Shown here piece by piece: positions 1,561 to 29,378 of a stretch of 64,000 bases of DNA. The DNA lies in the IMG/VR virus record IMGVR_UViG_3300034072_000926, positions 229,621-293,620 of that record. One strand, written 5' to 3'. Positions within the stretch are counted from its first letter, which is position 1, and each line of letters starts with the position of its first letter. Under the pieces are notes generated by a model. The model was given only the letters and a program-made list of their open reading frames with translations, searched no databases and was not told the DNA's origin. The translations under genes were made by a program, and so were the position numbers. This stretch comes from a virus.

Positions 1561-2763
1561 TCAAGCGCCCAGGATCAGGTCCTGATACTTGTCCGAGAAG
1601 TCGTCCCAGTTCTTCATGCCCGAAGGATCGAACTGGATCTTGAAGATCGCCAGTGCGGTGCGCGCACCCATGATCACCATTTCGGACTGGAAGTTGCCCA
1701 TCATGAAGCCGAGGAAGTTATCCACGTTCGTGTTGAACTTCTTCTTGTCTTCGGCCTTGGCGCCCTTGCCGGCGTTGGTGTCGAAGCGGTCCTTCAGCTC
1801 GTAGCACAGAGCGGTCGTCAGTGCATACATCAGCGAGATGTCAGCGCCCTTCTTCAGCTCAGTGACCTTGCCTTCCAGAATGTCGCTGGCGGCGGGCAGG
1901 TTTGCCGCGTTCTTGCGGTATTCCAGGAACTTGACCGCGATACCGTCGCCGACGGCGCCGGCGATCAGTGCCATCTGGACGCTTTCCGGCAGATTCGGAT
2001 CACCGCGCAGGATATCCGAAACGCTTTCCCACGAACGAGGGGTCGGGAAGCCACGCGATGCGCTCGTCGCTTCGAACTGGAACAGTTCGTGCTTGAAGGC
2101 AGTCAGGTAGCCGACCACGGCCTGGTGGAACTGGGTGTTCAGCGCGAAGGTCTGGAAGTCTTCGAAGTCGACCCGCATTTCGATGTGCGTGAAGCGATTC
2201 AGCAGCGGGGTCGGCATCTTGAACGTGGCGCCCTTGTCGGTGTCACGGTTGCCGGCGGCCATCACGATCACGTTGGTCGGGCAGACCCATTCGCCGAGCG
2301 CGCCGTCCAGAACGATCTGGTAAGAACCAGCCTGGACCGAAGGAGCAGCGTTGGGAAGTTCGTCGAGCAGGATGATCGCACCATCATAATTGTGGCCGAA
2401 ATCGTCGGTGATGACTGCGCGACCCTTTTCGTCGCCGGCGGTGCGCTTGGGCAGCATTGCCGGGATCGCCCATTCCACATATGCACGACCTTCGTCGTTC
2501 TTGAAGGGAACCGGGATGCCGCGAAGGTCAGTGGGTTCCATCTGCGTCAGTCGAATGTCGATGAGCTTGTAGTTCAGCTCGTCGGCGACCTGTTCGACGA
2601 CCGAGGACTTTGCGATGCCGGGAGCGCCCCAGATGAACAGACCACGGCGCTTCTTGCCGATTTCTGCGTTCTTGAGGTTCACTTCCACCATGTGCTTGAT
2701 TGCAATGGCAGCTTCCGACGGCTTCACCGTCAGCGTGTCGATACGATTTGCCTTCTTGGACAT
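1561..2763 (-). CDS. MoxR-type AAA+ ATPase
   Basis: This 400-residue protein has a Walker A motif GAPGIAKS (46-53) and a Walker B segment IILLDELPN (about 130-138), as in the MoxR branch of AAA+ ATPases. The text between them (ADELNYKLIDIRL, then TDLRGIP) is typical of MoxR-like proteins. Such ATPases work with VWA-domain partners to remodel protein complexes or insert cofactors. The adjacent VWA protein at 145-1434 fits that pairing, although each gene has its own promoter and a terminator lies between them. Its substrate is unknown. The ATG at 2763 is preceded by a TAAGGAG ribosome site. Confidence 0.85.
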   Translation of the reverse strand: MSKKANRIDTLTVKPSEAAIAIKHMVEVNLKNAEIGKKRRGLFIWGAPGIAKSSVVEQVADELNYKLIDIRLTQMEPTDLRGIPVPFKNDEGRAYVEWAIPAMLPKRTAGDEKGRAVITDDFGHNYDGAIILLDELPNAAPSVQAGSYQIVLDGALGEWVCPTNVIVMAAGNRDTDKGATFKMPTPLLNRFTHIEMRVDFEDFQTFALNTQFHQAVVGYLTAFKHELFQFEATSASRGFPTPRSWESVSDILRGDPNLPESVQMALIAGAVGDGIAVKFLEYRKNAANLPAASDILEGKVTELKKGADISLMYALTTALCYELKDRFDTNAGKGAKAEDKKKFNTNVDNFLGFMMGNFQSEMVIMGARTALAIFKIQFDPSGMKNWDDFSDKYQDLILGA

Positions 2764-3699: not shown

Positions 3700-4281
3700 A
3701 TGACTCAATATAAACGAATCGTAGGTCTTTCAGGAGGCATGGGTGCAGGCAAGTCCACACTCGTTGCTGTTATTCTGGAAAATGGCATTCCTGTTTGGGA
3801 TGCAGACAAGGCTGTTCATGCTCTCTATGAGACTGAGGGCTTTGTCGATGAAATCTCAAGCAAATTGGGAATCAGGACGCGAGCAGAGGCTGCTGCCCTA
3901 ATCGTTCAGGACCCAAGTGTTCTTCCTATACTGGAAAAGCTTGCCGAGGAATGGCTCGAAGCTGACTTCCAAGTGTTCATGAGCAAGCATGAGTCGGCAA
4001 AGTTCGTGATCATGGACGTTCCACTGCTTTATGAGCAGGGATGGGACGAACTCTGTGATTCGGTGATTATTGTCCAATGTCCCAGGGCTATCCGCGAAGA
4101 GCGCGTGATGAAACGGCCTGGTATGACTCCTGAGAAGATGAAGCTTCTCATGGACAAGCAACTTAGCGATGAAGAACGTCTAGACCGGGGTAACTTCATC
4201 GTCTACACTGACAGCGATATTGAGGATAGTCGTCACATTATGACAGGCATCCTCACACACCTTCAGGAGTTTTACGCATGA
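3700..4281 (+). CDS. coaE: Dephospho-CoA kinase
   Basis: The 193-residue protein has a P-loop GGMGAGKS (12-19), the early VWDADK motif around residue 34, and the DVPLLYE and QLSDEERLDRG segments expected of dephospho-CoA kinase. The enzyme phosphorylates the 3' hydroxyl of dephospho-CoA with ATP, the last step of coenzyme A synthesis, in the cytoplasm. Length is close to bacterial CoaE (about 200). It overlaps the following coaD by 4 bases (ATGA), so the two are surely co-translated. An unrelated P-loop nucleotide kinase is the main alternative, but the adjacent coaD makes CoaE much more likely. Confidence 0.85.
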   Translation: MTQYKRIVGLSGGMGAGKSTLVAVILENGIPVWDADKAVHALYETEGFVDEISSKLGIRTRAEAAALIVQDPSVLPILEKLAEEWLEADFQVFMSKHESAKFVIMDVPLLYEQGWDELCDSVIIVQCPRAIREERVMKRPGMTPEKMKLLMDKQLSDEERLDRGNFIVYTDSDIEDSRHIMTGILTHLQEFYA

Positions 4282-4826
4282 CCGCAGTTGGTCTTTATGC
4301 TGGTTCATTCGACCCTCTAACCCGTGGTCATCTGGACATCATATGCAAGGCTGTTCAGACCTTCGAGACAACCTACGTGGCTTGTGCGAGGAATGCAGCG
4401 AAGAAGGGACTCTTCGCGATTGCAGATCGTCTGGATCTGATTCAGAGCTCCTGTGAGGAATGGGAGAATCCCATCCTCAAACAAGCAATCTCGCAAGGTC
4501 GTTTGCAGTTTGGTTCCTATGAGGGAATCAGCATCATCAAGTATGCAAACCAAATTGGCGCAACCCACATTGTTCGTGGTCTTCGACAGGCCGGCGATTT
4601 CAATGATGAGTTCGCGTTGACTGGTATTGCGGGTCAACTGGACAGCAATGTGATCTTCACACATTTCATCGGCAAGGAGAAATACCTGCATGTCTCGAGT
4701 TCAACGGCTCGGGAACTCGCGAGTTTGAATGAAGATGTCAGCTGGCTTGTCACTCCTAGTGTCGAGCACGCCTTGAAGGTGGTATTCAGCGGAGGGCAAC
4801 TAGCCGCTCACCCCTACAAGCCGTAA
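4278..4826 (+). CDS. coaD: Phosphopantetheine adenylyltransferase
   Basis: This 182-residue protein shows the nucleotidyltransferase signature AGSFDPLTRGH (T15 and H18 correspond to the catalytic TxGH), then the conserved IVRGLR (98-103) and the VSSS phosphate-binding turn (139-142). These are hallmarks of CoaD, which transfers AMP to 4'-phosphopantetheine to give dephospho-CoA. That product is the substrate of the kinase encoded immediately upstream. The protein is slightly longer than host CoaD (about 160), with extra residues at the C-terminus. It is translated from an ATG overlapping the coaE stop. Confidence 0.9.
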   Translation: MTAVGLYAGSFDPLTRGHLDIICKAVQTFETTYVACARNAAKKGLFAIADRLDLIQSSCEEWENPILKQAISQGRLQFGSYEGISIIKYANQIGATHIVRGLRQAGDFNDEFALTGIAGQLDSNVIFTHFIGKEKYLHVSSSTARELASLNEDVSWLVTPSVEHALKVVFSGGQLAAHPYKP

Positions 4827-4864: not shown

Positions 4865-5077
4865 ATGGATGCCGGTTTTCTATTGATGTTTGTCATGTGG
4901 CTGTTCCTGATGTTTGCAATTCCAGGAGCCATTTTTGCCATCTACAAAGAAACACAGGAGAGAACGATTTGTTCTCCCCTGATCGTCTCACTTCTCGTCA
5001 TCACAGTTTGTATGGCCTACGCTTTCTACATATTCACGCAGGTCTGCTTCCCAGTTGTTCGCGCGCTCTTCCTGTAA
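4865..5077 (+). CDS. Small two-helix membrane protein
   Basis: The 70-residue product is almost entirely hydrophobic, with two predicted membrane segments (about 3-28 and 39-62) joined by a short loop containing KETQERT. A clear TAGGAG ribosome site precedes the ATG. It could be a holin-like or superinfection-related protein, but nothing specific identifies it. Its last 90 bases overlap, in antisense, the 3' end of the convergent gene at 4988-5275. Confidence 0.6.
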   Translation: MDAGFLLMFVMWLFLMFAIPGAIFAIYKETQERTICSPLIVSLLVITVCMAYAFYIFTQVCFPVVRALFL

Positions 5078-5359: not shown

Positions 5360-6232
5360 TTACTTACTTGGAACTTCGATTTGTGTCAAGGTAAAGGGCG
5401 GATTCTCACGTGGATAGCCCCGTGCATTGTTGGCATAGATAACACCATCAATCTCAGTCATCTTCCTCGTGTGAGTGTGGCCATAGACCCAATAACGGAT
5501 CTTCTTGTTCACATCTGCTTCCAAGCAATTTTTCAAGCTCGTGTTCACATAGCTTGGAGTGAGCGTATTCCAGAACACATCGCCAGCTTTCCACTGCATA
5601 ATGTCTGCCCTTGGGCTCATATGTGTGGTCATGACAATTGACGCAACATCGTCATCATTCTGAACATCACGGACATTCTCAGCCAGCTGAACACTCTGTT
5701 CCATAGCCATACGAAGAGGACTGCTACCATCGAAATCGGGATAGCGAGAATCGTTGGAATATGAAGCCCATGCGCGTTGTGCCGTGAAGCTTGTAATGCC
5801 TTGATTAGCATAAGCCTCAAAGTCATACCAGCCGGTAGCACCGAAGAATGCCACTCCATCTAGCACGAACGTATCAGTACCATCGAGGTAGTGGACATTC
5901 GGGAAGGCTTTGAGCTCCTCCTTGAAGAACTCCATGCCGTTCCGAACTGTCATGTCTTCGCCATAATGCTCATGGTTGCCATCAACGACAATCACGTGTT
6001 CATATTCCTCTGCCGCAGCACCTACGACTTCCTTAGAAGTGAATAGGCTATTCGCAGTATCACCAGCAATGATCAGAACACGGCTTTCCGGGTTCTTGTA
6101 ATAACGCCAGTCGATATGGAGGAACTGTGACTTATATGGTTCACCTGTCCACATGCGACGATCGGGATCATGGAGAATAGTCTCACCCATCCACTGATCA
6201 ACATGGAGGTCAGAACAGAAATCAATCTTCAC
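5360..6232 (-). CDS. Calcineurin-like metallophosphoesterase
   Basis: The 290-residue protein shows the metallophosphoesterase metal-binding series in order: DLH (D8, H10), GDTAN (D58), GNHE (85-88), a histidine in TTHMSP, and GHTH near residues 250-255. These coordinate two metal ions for hydrolysis of phosphomonoesters or diesters. The substrate cannot be told; nucleic acid ends, cyclic nucleotides and protein phosphates are all possible. It overlaps the upstream gene by 4 bases (ATGA). Confidence 0.88.
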   Translation of the reverse strand: MKIDFCSDLHVDQWMGETILHDPDRRMWTGEPYKSQFLHIDWRYYKNPESRVLIIAGDTANSLFTSKEVVGAAAEEYEHVIVVDGNHEHYGEDMTVRNGMEFFKEELKAFPNVHYLDGTDTFVLDGVAFFGATGWYDFEAYANQGITSFTAQRAWASYSNDSRYPDFDGSSPLRMAMEQSVQLAENVRDVQNDDDVASIVMTTHMSPRADIMQWKAGDVFWNTLTPSYVNTSLKNCLEADVNKKIRYWVYGHTHTRKMTEIDGVIYANNARGYPRENPPFTLTQIEVPSK

Positions 6233-11193: not shown

Positions 11194-12123
11194 TTACTTT
11201 CCAATAATATTGCCAAAGCACCAAGTGTGAACACGTAGGGCTACGGAATAACCACGCTCCACTGCCTGTTCAGCAATAATAGCCTGATGGCTTTCCTGCA
11301 TCTCACGGTCAGCACCAACAGGCATAATCCAAACGTCCCAATCAATACCGGCTTTGCGATATGCTTCAGTTGCCCTCGCAACTTCATCCCAAGAACGATC
11401 AGTGCCGTTGCTGACGAACTTCAACTGACCATGATCGCTGATTGCCTTATAGTGGGCAAGAACGTCTGGCTTGATCGCGTTGTCCCAAAGTTCGCCCGAG
11501 AGATAGAGCTTAGGGCTTACAGACCAGAACAGTTCTGTATCACAAGCCACTGCATCATGATCTGCATCGAGCAGCTTCGTTGGACGCTCCCTGAAATCTC
11601 CATTGAAGAAGTTCTCAAAAGCAGGGCGAGGCTTCTGCGTTCCATTTGTTTCAATGGTAACGAAACGAGGCATGTTGTAACGCTTGCGGAAGTTCTGCAT
11701 CACATCAACAACTGCGGTCTGGCTCATCATTGGTTCGCCGCCGGTGAAAGCCATGTGGTGCCACTGCTTCGAGGTAGGATGTTCAAACTTACCACCAGGT
11801 AGAGTTGCTTCAATCTTGTCACAGATTTCAGCAGCCGTGTTCTGATGAGCAAGGTGTGAGAACCTCTTGGACCATGAGTAGCTCGAATCACAGCCCCTGT
11901 GGAAAACTGGAAGAGCTTCCATAGACTTGTATTCCGAAGGATCAATCTTCAGATAGTCCAGGTCGTAGGTCTCTGGCTTATCGGGCTGTTCCTGACCGAA
12001 GCCCGCACATTCGAAGTTGCAACCCCAAACTCGCAACCATGCTGTTGGACGACCGGTGTAAGCACCTTCACCCTGGAATGTTTGTCCGAAGATCTCGGAG
12101 TATCGATATTTCTTTTCAGTCAT
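11194..12123 (-). CDS. queE: 7-carboxy-7-deazaguanine synthase (radical SAM)
   Basis: The 309-residue protein opens EIFGQTFQGEG and RVWGCNFEC, characteristic of QueE, with GGEP at 128-131. QueE converts 6-carboxytetrahydropterin to carboxy-deazaguanine in the queuosine/deazaguanine pathway. The iron-sulfur cysteines appear as C35, C39 and C78 (HRGCDSSYSW), so the third is displaced by an insert of about 40 residues compared with the compact CxxxCxxC. FolE, which feeds the same pathway, lies two genes upstream. The start at 12123 is coupled to the phosphoribosyltransferase stop by ATGA. Confidence 0.85.
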   Translation of the reverse strand: MTEKKYRYSEIFGQTFQGEGAYTGRPTAWLRVWGCNFECAGFGQEQPDKPETYDLDYLKIDPSEYKSMEALPVFHRGCDSSYSWSKRFSHLAHQNTAAEICDKIEATLPGGKFEHPTSKQWHHMAFTGGEPMMSQTAVVDVMQNFRKRYNMPRFVTIETNGTQKPRPAFENFFNGDFRERPTKLLDADHDAVACDTELFWSVSPKLYLSGELWDNAIKPDVLAHYKAISDHGQLKFVSNGTDRSWDEVARATEAYRKAGIDWDVWIMPVGADREMQESHQAIIAEQAVERGYSVALRVHTWCFGNIIGK

Positions 12124-12623
12124 GCTTTCCACCATTCCTCGTAGGGAAAGATCACCCAGGAATCATCTTCGCTGCGATTGATCTCTCGACCTGCATAATT
12201 GGGCTCGAAGAGATCCTGGCCAATGTTGTTCCACAATACTGCAGACTTGAGCTCGTTGGAGCAATCATATTCGTCCGCATTATCTAGGTGGCACAGGATT
12301 TCATCCAGCTGGTCCACTACATTACGGAGAGTATCCCCGCCATCGCAAATATCATCTACGAGTAGGACCTTTTTCTTTGCCTTGATCTTCAGCGCAACAT
12401 CGTTGATTTCAGATGCCTGACTGACCTTGCGATCACGAAGAGAATAGTTGATCACTTCGAGGGGCTTGCCCAGGTAGTGGCTCAACATTGTGGCGGGCAC
12501 CAATCCCCCGCGAGCAATACCGACGATGATATCTGGCATGAAAGCATCCAGGGTCATCTGGCGCAGGATCTCTTGAAGGTCACCGCGCAATTGGGTATTG
12601 GTGTAAATGATCTTGTTGGGCAT
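12120..12623 (-). CDS. Purine-type phosphoribosyltransferase
   Basis: The 167-residue protein has the PRPP-binding motif VLLVDDICDGGDT (86-98), an upstream IVGIARGGLVPA loop and the LRDRK flexible region. It matches type I phosphoribosyltransferases such as xanthine or hypoxanthine-guanine enzymes. It would join a purine base to PRPP. Its position between folE and queE suggests a deazapurine or purine base as substrate, which is inference. The start shares one base with the upstream stop (TAATG). Confidence 0.82.
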   Translation of the reverse strand: MPNKIIYTNTQLRGDLQEILRQMTLDAFMPDIIVGIARGGLVPATMLSHYLGKPLEVINYSLRDRKVSQASEINDVALKIKAKKKVLLVDDICDGGDTLRNVVDQLDEILCHLDNADEYDCSNELKSAVLWNNIGQDLFEPNYAGREINRSEDDSWVIFPYEEWWKA

Positions 12624-12928: not shown

Positions 12929-13690
12929 TTAATTGTGGCCCTTCATGCTCAGCATGATCTTGTAGAACTCGTCCTTCAGGTGAGCATCTTCACGGAACTT
13001 GCCACGCATAATTGCAGTGGTCATATCCGATTCGTGCTCGCGAACACCGCGATGCGTCATGCAGTGGTGTTCGGCCTTCAGGACAACCGCGACGTTTTCA
13101 GTCTCGGCGTATTCGACCAGAGCATCAGCAATCTGAGTGGTCATCTCTTCCTGAATCTGAGGACGTTCGCTGATCCAGTGGACCAGACGATTGAACTTCG
13201 ACAGGCCAATGACTTTATCCTCAGGGAAGATACCAACCCAGCACTTGCCAACAATATTCTGGAAGTGATGAGCACAAGTGGAACGGATCGAGATCGGACC
13301 TGCGGTGTAGAGATCCTGATAGCCGATGTTGGGGAACGAAGTGATCTTCGGAGCAGCCGAATAACGACCGCCGTAGGTTTCGTTCACATACATCTTGGCT
13401 ACGCGACGAGCCGTGCCATTGGTGTTGTGGTCATGATCAGTGTCGATGACCAGGCTGCGGAGAACCGCTTCCATCTTCTCAGTGACTTCATCGACTAGAA
13501 GAGCACGCTCTTCATCGCTGATGAACTTTGAGATGTTGTCGTTGCAATGGAACTGTTGACCAGCTTCAATCAAACGGGCGCGGATTTGTTCAGATACCGG
13601 AATTGGTGTGTCGGTAGCTGTAACCTCTTGCCCGAAAGTGCATTCACAATCGTTAGAGCCGCAGCTCTCGGTAAGTTTGGTGTCGGACAT
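12929..13690 (-). CDS. folE: GTP cyclohydrolase I
   Basis: The 253-residue protein shows the FolE core: STCAHHF with zinc ligands C139 and H142, the third ligand C210 in AEHHCM, and THRGVREHES. It converts GTP to dihydroneopterin triphosphate, the first step towards folate and towards queuosine/deazaguanine. With QueE downstream the deazaguanine role is favoured. The N-terminal 45 residues include a Cys-rich stretch (CGSNDCEC) not needed for catalysis. A TTGACA promoter lies at 13719-13747 and AAGGAG precedes the ATG. Confidence 0.93.
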   Translation of the reverse strand: MSDTKLTESCGSNDCECTFGQEVTATDTPIPVSEQIRARLIEAGQQFHCNDNISKFISDEERALLVDEVTEKMEAVLRSLVIDTDHDHNTNGTARRVAKMYVNETYGGRYSAAPKITSFPNIGYQDLYTAGPISIRSTCAHHFQNIVGKCWVGIFPEDKVIGLSKFNRLVHWISERPQIQEEMTTQIADALVEYAETENVAVVLKAEHHCMTHRGVREHESDMTTAIMRGKFREDAHLKDEFYKIMLSMKGHN

Positions 13691-28240: not shown

Positions 28241-28840
28241 TCACTTAATCCATTTATTCAAATCATTTCTACTCACTACCACATAGCCTTGTTCGACAAG
28301 CATGTTCATGAACAAATGTGGCAATTCATAATCGACATTTCGATATTGTTCTGGTAGGTCTTCCCATGGGCGCATAAGCGGGTGTTGTTTACTCGTCTTA
28401 TCTTCCTTCAAACCAAATGACCAACCTCTGGCCGAACGTGCTTCATACCAGCGTTGGTGTTGGTGCTTAGCCAGCGTTACACAAAGAGAGTTGTAATCGT
28501 CCTCGTCCATTACAACAGCGTCAGCTGGACCTTGACGCGCGGATTTAACATCTTCAGAACTTGTTTCAATTTCGCCCTCAGGATATGCAGATTCAATTAT
28601 AGCCGTTTCATCTTCGGTGAGGTCACGGGTTAGTGGAATTTCATAATAGTGGGTGCCACTCTTTGTTTCTTTATGAACCATAAAGACTACATCGGGGTCA
28701 CCTTGAGGATTTGTTGTCTGCACACTGGATTGAACCCCAGATGGCAGATTGTTCTTTACACAATGATACCACGCGATAGCCTCCTCTTTCGAGAGAGGCT
28801 CGCTTGTTTTTAGTCGGATGAAGAGTGGAATCTCTGTCAT
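28241..28840 (-). CDS. RyR-domain protein
   Basis: The 199-residue product has a C-terminal half matching the RyR repeat: HQHQRWYEARSARGWSFG, then KQHPLMRPWEDLPEQYRNVD. In ryanodine receptors and in scattered bacterial and phage proteins this domain may bind nucleotides or proteins. The N-terminal half is a separate alpha/beta region. The start at 28840 is one base after the holin-like gene's stop; a longer start would run into that gene. Role in the phage unknown. Confidence 0.72.
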   Translation of the reverse strand: MTEIPLFIRLKTSEPLSKEEAIAWYHCVKNNLPSGVQSSVQTTNPQGDPDVVFMVHKETKSGTHYYEIPLTRDLTEDETAIIESAYPEGEIETSSEDVKSARQGPADAVVMDEDDYNSLCVTLAKHQHQRWYEARSARGWSFGLKEDKTSKQHPLMRPWEDLPEQYRNVDYELPHLFMNMLVEQGYVVVSRNDLNKWIK

Positions 28841-28841
28841 G

Positions 28842-29378
28842 TTAATACTTATCAGGCTCCGCATCTGGATTATCAATTCCTGCCGCAGTTGTCTGATCAA
28901 CAGCTGGATTATTACCACCCGTTACGTTGACCTGAGTCACTGGAGTAGGATTTGGATTCAGCTGGCTTGGCACATAATAGGTAGGAACCATCGTCGGAGT
29001 ATATGGAGAACGATCGCTCTCACCCGACTGACGAATGCTCTCAATCTGTGCGCTACCACGAGTCCATGCCGCAACACCAAGAATTGCACCGAAAGCAACG
29101 TGGAAGAGACCACTACCCTGCATAGTCAGAGGTTGCCAAGGCGTCCTGTTCTGGATTAACGCAACTGCAATCTGTGGATCCAAGTCCTTAATCGCAGCGG
29201 CCATCTGTGCCATGTTTGCACTCTTGAAGCCCATGAAAGCAGGGGCGACAATAAAGTCGAATACGCAGATTGCCAAATATACGACGGCGGCTGCTGGTCG
29301 CCAAGACCTATTCAGCCAGCCTTCGCCCTCTTCCAATGGATCGTATGGATCCTTCTTAATTTGCTTCTTCTTTGCCAT
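28842..29378 (-). CDS. Holin-like membrane protein
   Basis: The 178-residue protein has a first membrane segment preceded by LNRSWRP (VVYLAICVFDFIVAP), an amphipathic middle, and a second segment in GSGLFHVAFGAILGVAAW. It ends in a long polar tail rich in Pro/Asn/Thr. The 'W-x-LT...G-x-GLFH-x-x-FGAILG' pattern resembles phage holins that permeabilise the inner membrane for lysis. No endolysin is seen next to it, so the call is tentative. Confidence 0.55.
   Translation of the reverse strand: MAKKKQIKKDPYDPLEEGEGWLNRSWRPAAAVVYLAICVFDFIVAPAFMGFKSANMAQMAAAIKDLDPQIAVALIQNRTPWQPLTMQGSGLFHVAFGAILGVAAWTRGSAQIESIRQSGESDRSPYTPTMVPTYYVPSQLNPNPTPVTQVNVTGGNNPAVDQTTAAGIDNPDAEPDKY

What the first reader, a model, noticed from the sequence alone, without database searches (positions are those of the whole stretch)
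3700..4826. Phage-encoded last two steps of coenzyme A synthesis (coaE-coaD)
Both enzymes keep their catalytic motifs and are fused into one translational unit by a 4-base overlap. In bacteria the two genes are usually apart. This suggests selection for CoA or dephospho-CoA supply during infection, or for use of dephospho-CoA as an RNA 5' cap or NCIN. The role is inference.
Basis: partly seen in the sequence, partly recalled or inferred. Interest (0 to 1): 0.72.

Follow-up and report, generated by a model that had tools for sequence, protein, structure and literature searches.

The report
Huge phage's own coenzyme A genes
A 465-kb virus of bacteria carries its own copies of the last two enzymes that make coenzyme A, joined in one small operon; related and unrelated huge phages carry the same pair in other arrangements, sometimes as a single fused gene, so boosting coenzyme A in the infected cell is probably useful to them, though nobody has yet tested this.

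Summary
Window 3700-4281 (+) encodes dephospho-CoA kinase (CoaE) and 4278-4826 (+) encodes phosphopantetheine adenylyltransferase (CoaD), overlapping by ATGA. Both pass NCBIfam equivalog cut-offs, keep the conserved active-site residues and show saturated synonymous but constrained protein change. The CoaE model's best 30 PDB matches are all dephospho-CoA kinases. The record is a 465-kb myovirus-type phage related to Sinorhizobium phage Phosso and Agrobacterium phage Atu_ph07, which carry a glutaredoxin gene in the same slot.

Beyond the finding: (i) CoaD belongs to a subfamily shared by jumbo phages and a rare second CoaD copy in some Alphaproteobacteria; CoaE is alphaproteobacterial-like, so the operon was assembled from two sources. 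(ii) Among nine relatives coaD is constant, coaE present in five. (iii) Other huge phages carry both genes: unlinked, as an overlapping coaD-coaE pair (735-kb phage), or as one fused CoaD-CoaE protein, also seen on a megaplasmid.

Best reading: the phage draws host 4'-phosphopantetheine to CoA. The dephospho-CoA RNA-cap idea is disfavoured because CoaE consumes dephospho-CoA. coaD and coaE were already listed as phage metabolic genes (PMC11097641); the operon, fusions and CoaD subfamily were not found described. No activity has been measured.

The parts
3700..4281 (+). coaE: dephospho-CoA kinase (CoA synthesis, last step), 193 aa
   Evidence: PF01121 2e-27; TIGR00152 above cut-off; AF2 pLDDT 90.8; the best 30 PDB fold matches are all dephospho-CoA kinases (one the kinase part of CoA synthase), TM up to 0.89; Walker A GGMGAGKST, conserved Asp36 and lid Arg/Gln
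4278..4826 (+). coaD: phosphopantetheine adenylyltransferase (penultimate step), 182 aa, of the phage/CoaD2 subfamily
   Evidence: TIGR01510 117.4 bits; profile to PDB PPATs E=1e-37; aligned to E. coli CoaD: H18, K42, R88, R91, E99, S129 equivalents kept, T10 is Ser; tree
4278..4281 (+). ATGA overlap of the coaE stop and the coaD start (translational coupling inferred)
   Evidence: sequence; the same ATGA in L003, L004, L006, L026
3341..3652 (-). conserved 103-aa flanking gene, left border of the variable slot
   Evidence: 87-100% identical in relatives, 83% in Phosso, 59% in Atu_ph07
4865..5077 (+). possible third gene of the operon: 70-aa protein with two hydrophobic segments (unverified)
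   Evidence: 53% identical ORF in L006; unrelated small hydrophobic ORFs follow coaD in L002, L005, L007, none in L003, L004, L026
4988..5287 (-). conserved 99-aa gene, right border of the slot
   Evidence: 53-73% identity in relatives, about 42-45% in Phosso
5360..6232 (-). metallophosphoesterase, syntenic flank
   Evidence: PF00149; orthologue in Phosso and Atu_ph07
1561..2763 (-). AAA ATPase, syntenic flank
   Evidence: phrog_1297; 64.5% identical to Phosso

Best explanation
A phage-encoded terminal CoA-synthesis module. During infection CoaD adenylylates host 4'-phosphopantetheine to dephospho-CoA, and CoaE, made from the same message through stop-start overlap, at once phosphorylates it to CoA. 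The phage thereby draws on the host's 4'-phosphopantetheine pool (from host pantothenate kinase and CoaBC, or from ACP turnover) and escapes dependence on, and perhaps feedback control of, the host CoaD, keeping or raising CoA and acyl-CoA during a long, host-destroying infection. Shown here: gene identity, residues, fold (CoaE), linkage, recurrence, purifying selection, no CoaBC detected. Inferred: activity, flux, relaxed feedback and benefit. What the phage uses CoA for is unknown.
For: Both equivalog cut-offs passed; CoaE fold; residues; purifying selection. coaE and coaD co-occur: LR756500, LR756501, LR756502, LR745206, G449 and G450 were found through coaE and all six carry coaD, though LR756500 and G449 look near-identical. 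Linkage arose repeatedly: coaE-coaD overlap (window clade), coaD-coaE 4-nt overlap in the 735-kb phage LR756501, fused CoaD-CoaE ORFs in L037 and L227/L228. Chance adjacency on one strand is roughly 0.1-0.2% per phage (rough). CoaBC (PF04127) absent from G000 and no hit to E. coli CoaA.
Against: No biochemical or infection data. Among nine relatives coaE is missing in four while coaD stays, so the pair is not obligatory. Host bacteria already encode both enzymes. Cultured relatives Phosso and Atu_ph07 have neither gene in this slot and were not seen among the listed hits. Why CoA should be limiting is not shown.
Confidence: 0.62

Rival explanations
1. The module supplies dephospho-CoA as a non-canonical initiating nucleotide so that phage RNAs carry dephospho-CoA 5' caps.
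For: CoaD makes dephospho-CoA, a known RNA cap in bacteria (PMC9283932). Many jumbo phages carry coaD alone.
Against: CoaE, translated from the same message, removes dephospho-CoA; CoA has a 3'-phosphate and should not allow extension (own knowledge). Linked or fused CoaE would work against the cap.
Confidence: 0.07
2. Counter-defence: the module rebuilds CoA after a host defence lowers it, as phage NAD-reconstitution pathways do against NAD-depleting defences.
For: Phage NAD salvage genes accompany coaD in some phages (nicotinamide phosphoribosyltransferase near coaD in Caulobacter phage BL47 and Myxococcus phage Mx1). The genes are a patchy cassette in a variable slot.
Against: No CoA-depleting defence turned up in one literature search. 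No direct link.
Confidence: 0.1
3. Cofactor for phage-encoded acyl-CoA users (for example GNAT acetyltransferases) or thiol-redox balance: in the cultured relatives the same slot holds a glutaredoxin gene.
For: GNAT hits in 8 of 11 coaE+ and 1 of 6 coaE- records (p=0.05, or 0.12 after dropping one near-duplicate). Glutaredoxin in the slot of Phosso and Atu_ph07 and only a marginal glutaredoxin-like hit (E=0.01) in G000.
Against: A slot shared by unrelated cargo need not mean a shared function.
Confidence: 0.12
4. Neutral or transient host-gene cargo without function.
For: Patchy coaE; flanks show a variable slot.
Against: Purifying selection with saturated synonymous change, conserved overlap, coaD kept in all nine relatives, recurrence in unrelated huge phages.
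Confidence: 0.05

Closest known systems
Bacterial CoaD (TIGR01510) and CoaE (TIGR00152, PF01121)
   Same: Equivalog scores, active-site residues, fold (CoaE)
   Different: Encoded by a phage, adjacent and overlapping; CoaD is in a separate phage/CoaD2 subfamily; CoaE about 36% or less to the sampled bacterial CoaE
Phage auxiliary metabolic genes coaD and coaE of snow viromes (PMC11097641)
   Same: The same two functions listed as abundant viral metabolic genes; six metabolic genes marked in its figure lie on one 321.7-kb contig
   Different: No gene order, operon, phylogeny or fusion found in the sections read; whether the two are adjacent there is not stated
coaD of Caulobacter and Brevundimonas jumbo phages (Dolichocephalovirinae)
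   Same: Same CoaD subfamily, 42-45% identity, jumbo phages
   Different: coaD alone, no coaE in the two records searched; a different phage lineage
Eukaryotic CoA synthase (COASY, bifunctional PPAT + DPCK)
   Same: The same two steps physically coupled; the viral fusions L037 and L227 have the same domain order (own knowledge for COASY)
   Different: Separate overlapping genes in the window; the fusions use a bacterial-type CoaD
Phage NAD salvage and reconstitution genes
   Same: Cofactor synthesis genes on large phages; coaD lies near nicotinamide phosphoribosyltransferase in BL47 and Mx1
   Different: Different cofactor; no matching depletion defence found

Membership tests
Dephospho-CoA kinase (CoaE) | Score above the equivalog cut-off TIGR00152 | tested here: met
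   79.8 vs 65.55 bits; relatives 78-86
Dephospho-CoA kinase (CoaE) | P-loop GxxGxGKS/T, substrate Asp, lid Arg/Gln | tested here: met
   alignment with E. coli CoaE
Dephospho-CoA kinase (CoaE) | DPCK fold rather than another NMP-kinase-like fold | tested here: met
   top 30 PDB hits are DPCK (including the DPCK part of mouse CoA synthase); adenylate kinase first at rank 31, E 8.8e-6
Dephospho-CoA kinase (CoaE) | Phosphorylates the 3'-OH of dephospho-CoA | not testable with these tools
   needs an enzyme assay
Phosphopantetheine adenylyltransferase (CoaD) | Score above the equivalog cut-off TIGR01510, better than NMNAT/NaMNAT models | tested here: met
   117.4 vs 103.3; NaMNAT model 29.4 vs cut-off 112
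Phosphopantetheine adenylyltransferase (CoaD) | T/SxxH motif, Lys42, Arg88/Arg91, Glu99, SSS motif | tested here: met
   all kept, T10 is Ser
Phosphopantetheine adenylyltransferase (CoaD) | Adenylylates 4'-phosphopantetheine; CoA feedback | not testable with these tools
   needs an enzyme assay
Phage auxiliary metabolic gene | Host-like metabolic gene on a genuine phage genome, under selection | tested here: met
   phage genes both sides, synteny with Phosso and Atu_ph07, purifying selection
Phage auxiliary metabolic gene | Changes host metabolism during infection | not testable with these tools
   needs infection metabolomics
dephospho-CoA RNA-capping (NCIN) system | Raises dephospho-CoA without consuming it | tested here: not met
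   CoaE co-encoded with overlap; follows from the pathway, flux not measured
COASY-type bifunctional CoA synthase | PPAT and DPCK in one polypeptide | tested here: not met
   window has two ORFs; met in viral loci L037 and L227/L228 and in a megaplasmid, L274

The most novel reading that the evidence does not exclude
Terminal CoA synthesis is a convergent function of huge phages, aimed at keeping CoA available against a host process (an undiscovered CoA-depleting defence, or CoA feedback shut-off). The phage CoaD subfamily would be a feedback-insensitive PPAT, and the physical coupling to CoaE (overlap in either order, or fusion) would serve to clear dephospho-CoA quickly.
Probability: 0.15. 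Interest if true: 0.82.

Novelty: new variant of a known kind. Interest (0 to 1): 0.52.

Why it matters
CoA synthesis is usually thought of as the host's business during infection. Repeated linkage of the last two steps in several huge-phage lineages, once by gene fusion, would mark CoA as a resource phages control, like NAD and nucleotides. It would give clear targets: measure CoA pools in infection, test whether phage CoaD escapes feedback, and look for a host process that limits CoA. The rare second CoaD copies in Alphaproteobacteria point to gene flow between such phages and bacteria.

Tried and rejected
A close-relative search of viral contigs with the window CoaE alone found nothing; the four-sequence alignment and a broader one did. 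Microcystis phage MaAM05 coaD was set aside because rplA, rplK, nusG and secE beside it suggest bacterial sequence. The Listeria, Staphylococcus, Salmonella and Acinetobacter 'phage' fragments with separate coaD and coaE were not used (likely host DNA). G021 was set aside because an ABC transporter lies beside its coaD. G020 and G024 are left as ambiguous, so the coaD-coaE overlap claim rests on LR756501. L037's fused protein folded well only in its CoaD half, so its kinase half rests on sequence (61.4 bits, just under the cut-off of 65.55). ACP (PF00550) and ACPS (PF01648) searches gave no sign in G000 of a phage pantetheinylation pathway. A promoter for the operon was not recognised. The GNAT association is too weak to rely on. 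One literature search for a CoA-depleting defence found none. The paper cited for CoA-pathway metabolites rising during infection was not held.

Full report
WHAT IS THERE. The two genes are real and exactly placed: coaE 3700-4281 and coaD 4278-4826, both on the + strand, sharing ATGA. Sequence models assign both with curated equivalog thresholds. The best profile matches among solved structures are phosphopantetheine adenylyltransferases and dephospho-CoA kinases. An AlphaFold2 model of CoaE (pLDDT 90.8) matches dephospho-CoA kinases in all of its best 30 PDB hits (one of them the kinase part of mouse CoA synthase), TM up to 0.89, before any adenylate kinase. Aligned with the E. coli enzymes, the CoaD residues H18, K42, R88, R91, E99 and S129 and the CoaE P-loop and conserved Asp are kept.

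THE GENOME. The window lies in a 465,259-bp virus record. Its DNA polymerase is 57% identical to Sinorhizobium phage Phosso (469 kb) and 50% to Agrobacterium phage Atu_ph07 (490 kb), and the neighbourhood of the pair is syntenic with both: ATPase, a gene at the 131-aa position, the conserved 103-aa gene, [slot], a gene at the 99-aa position (not seen in Atu_ph07), metallophosphoesterase. In the cultured phages the slot holds a glutaredoxin gene in the orientation of its neighbours; here it holds coaE-coaD in the opposite orientation. The host is therefore probably an alphaproteobacterium, perhaps of Rhizobiales (inference). Base composition of the pair is that of the phage.

RELATIVES. Nine phage contigs share this locus. 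All keep coaD (68-78% to the window); five, the window included, have coaE as well (the other four 47-51% to the window), always with the ATGA overlap. On a well-supported tree of five neighbouring genes coaE needs two changes of state and the five CoaE proteins are one clade (100/100), so one gain and one or two losses is the simplest account. Codon comparisons show saturated synonymous change with constrained protein change in both genes, coaE evolving faster.

TWO SOURCES. The CoaD tree puts the phage clade in one supported group (96 SH-aLRT) with the CoaD of Dolichocephalovirinae jumbo phages, other viral CoaDs and a set of bacterial CoaDs from Caulobacteraceae, Sphingomonas and others. 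Those bacterial genes are a second copy: all 13 genomes examined also have the ordinary CoaD, which falls in a separate clade. With a strict threshold the second copy was seen in 1 of 385 genomes of the class, the seed itself, so it is rare. The phage CoaE instead groups with ordinary alphaproteobacterial CoaE (97/91). The operon was thus put together from two sources. Direction of transfer for the second CoaD is not settled, since the tree is unrooted.

OTHER HUGE PHAGES. Both genes occur together in unrelated records: LR756500 and its near twin G449, LR756502, LR745206, G010/G011, G012 and G450, unlinked; LR756501 (735 kb), where coaD and coaE overlap by 4 nt in the reverse order; and L037 and L227/L228, where CoaD and CoaE are one protein of 360 and 377 aa, 37% identical over nearly their whole length. 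The neighbours of the fusions include a tail-assembly-chaperone-like protein (L037) and a T4-type DNA ligase (L227). A related fusion lies on a 1.17-Mb Pseudomonas silesiensis plasmid, with altered CoaD motifs, so the fusion is not exclusive to viruses. In LR756501 the two neighbouring genes together match the fused protein over 81% of its length, so that pair and the fusions may share an ancestor; counted conservatively, linkage arose at least twice. All six large records found first through coaE also carry coaD (two of the six are near twins).

MECHANISM. The module needs only 4'-phosphopantetheine and ATP. No CoaBC was found in the phage, no hit to E. coli CoaA (a weak test), no ACP or ACP synthase family, so upstream steps are the host's. 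CoaD is a control point of the pathway in E. coli (own knowledge); a phage copy could bypass it, and CoaE next to it would carry the product forward. That coaD is the constant partner fits CoaD as the limiting step, with coaE an optional addition. The cap hypothesis is weakened by CoaE; it remains possible only for phages with coaD alone. What the phage needs CoA for is not known; an association of coaE with GNAT acetyltransferases is suggestive at best.

KNOWN AND NEW. A study of snow viromes already lists coaE and coaD among abundant viral metabolic genes and says their purpose is not entirely known (PMC11097641). coaD is annotated in cultured jumbo phages. The main text of the huge-phage survey does not mention them. 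What I did not find described is the overlapping operon, its recurrence in the reverse order, the fused viral protein, and the phage/second-copy CoaD subfamily. The library holds open-licence papers only, so prior description elsewhere is possible. I file it as a new variant of a known kind.

LIMITS. No activity, expression or infection data. IMG/VR records may be incomplete, so absences are soft; G020, G021 and G024 were not used as evidence. Adjacency probabilities are rough. CoaD of the window was not modelled in 3D.

Noticed in passing
L037 5001-6083; L227 3518-4651; L274 4986-6149: Single-protein CoaD-CoaE fusions on viral contigs and on a 1.17-Mb Pseudomonas silesiensis plasmid (there with altered CoaD motifs); L037's next gene looks NADAR-like by eye.
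   Followed up: partly
L058-L073 (for example L062 2977-3516): Rare second CoaD copy in Caulobacteraceae, Sphingomonas and Reyranella genomes, closer to phage CoaD than to the ordinary CoaD.
   Followed up: partly
L263 2209-2282 and L271 7951-8027 (G000): ARAGORN calls two tRNAs with a CTA anticodon ('tRNA-Pyl'), possible amber-suppressor tRNAs, beside a phage complement of more than 50 tRNAs clustered mostly in L252.
   Followed up: no
L250 5490-5747; L251 5682-5939: Glutaredoxin gene in the slot that holds coaE-coaD in the window: a cargo hot spot between conserved genes.
   Followed up: partly
window 11194-12135 and 12929-13690: QueE-like radical SAM protein and a GTP cyclohydrolase: possibly part of a 7-deazaguanine (queuosine/DNA modification) pathway.
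   Followed up: no
window 28241-28918: RyR domain protein (PF02026) on a phage.
   Followed up: no
L234 2992-4126 and 5222-6384: Myxococcus phage Mx1 has coaD overlapping a second nucleotidyltransferase gene (annotated cytidylyltransferase), with nicotinamide phosphoribosyltransferase nearby.
   Followed up: partly
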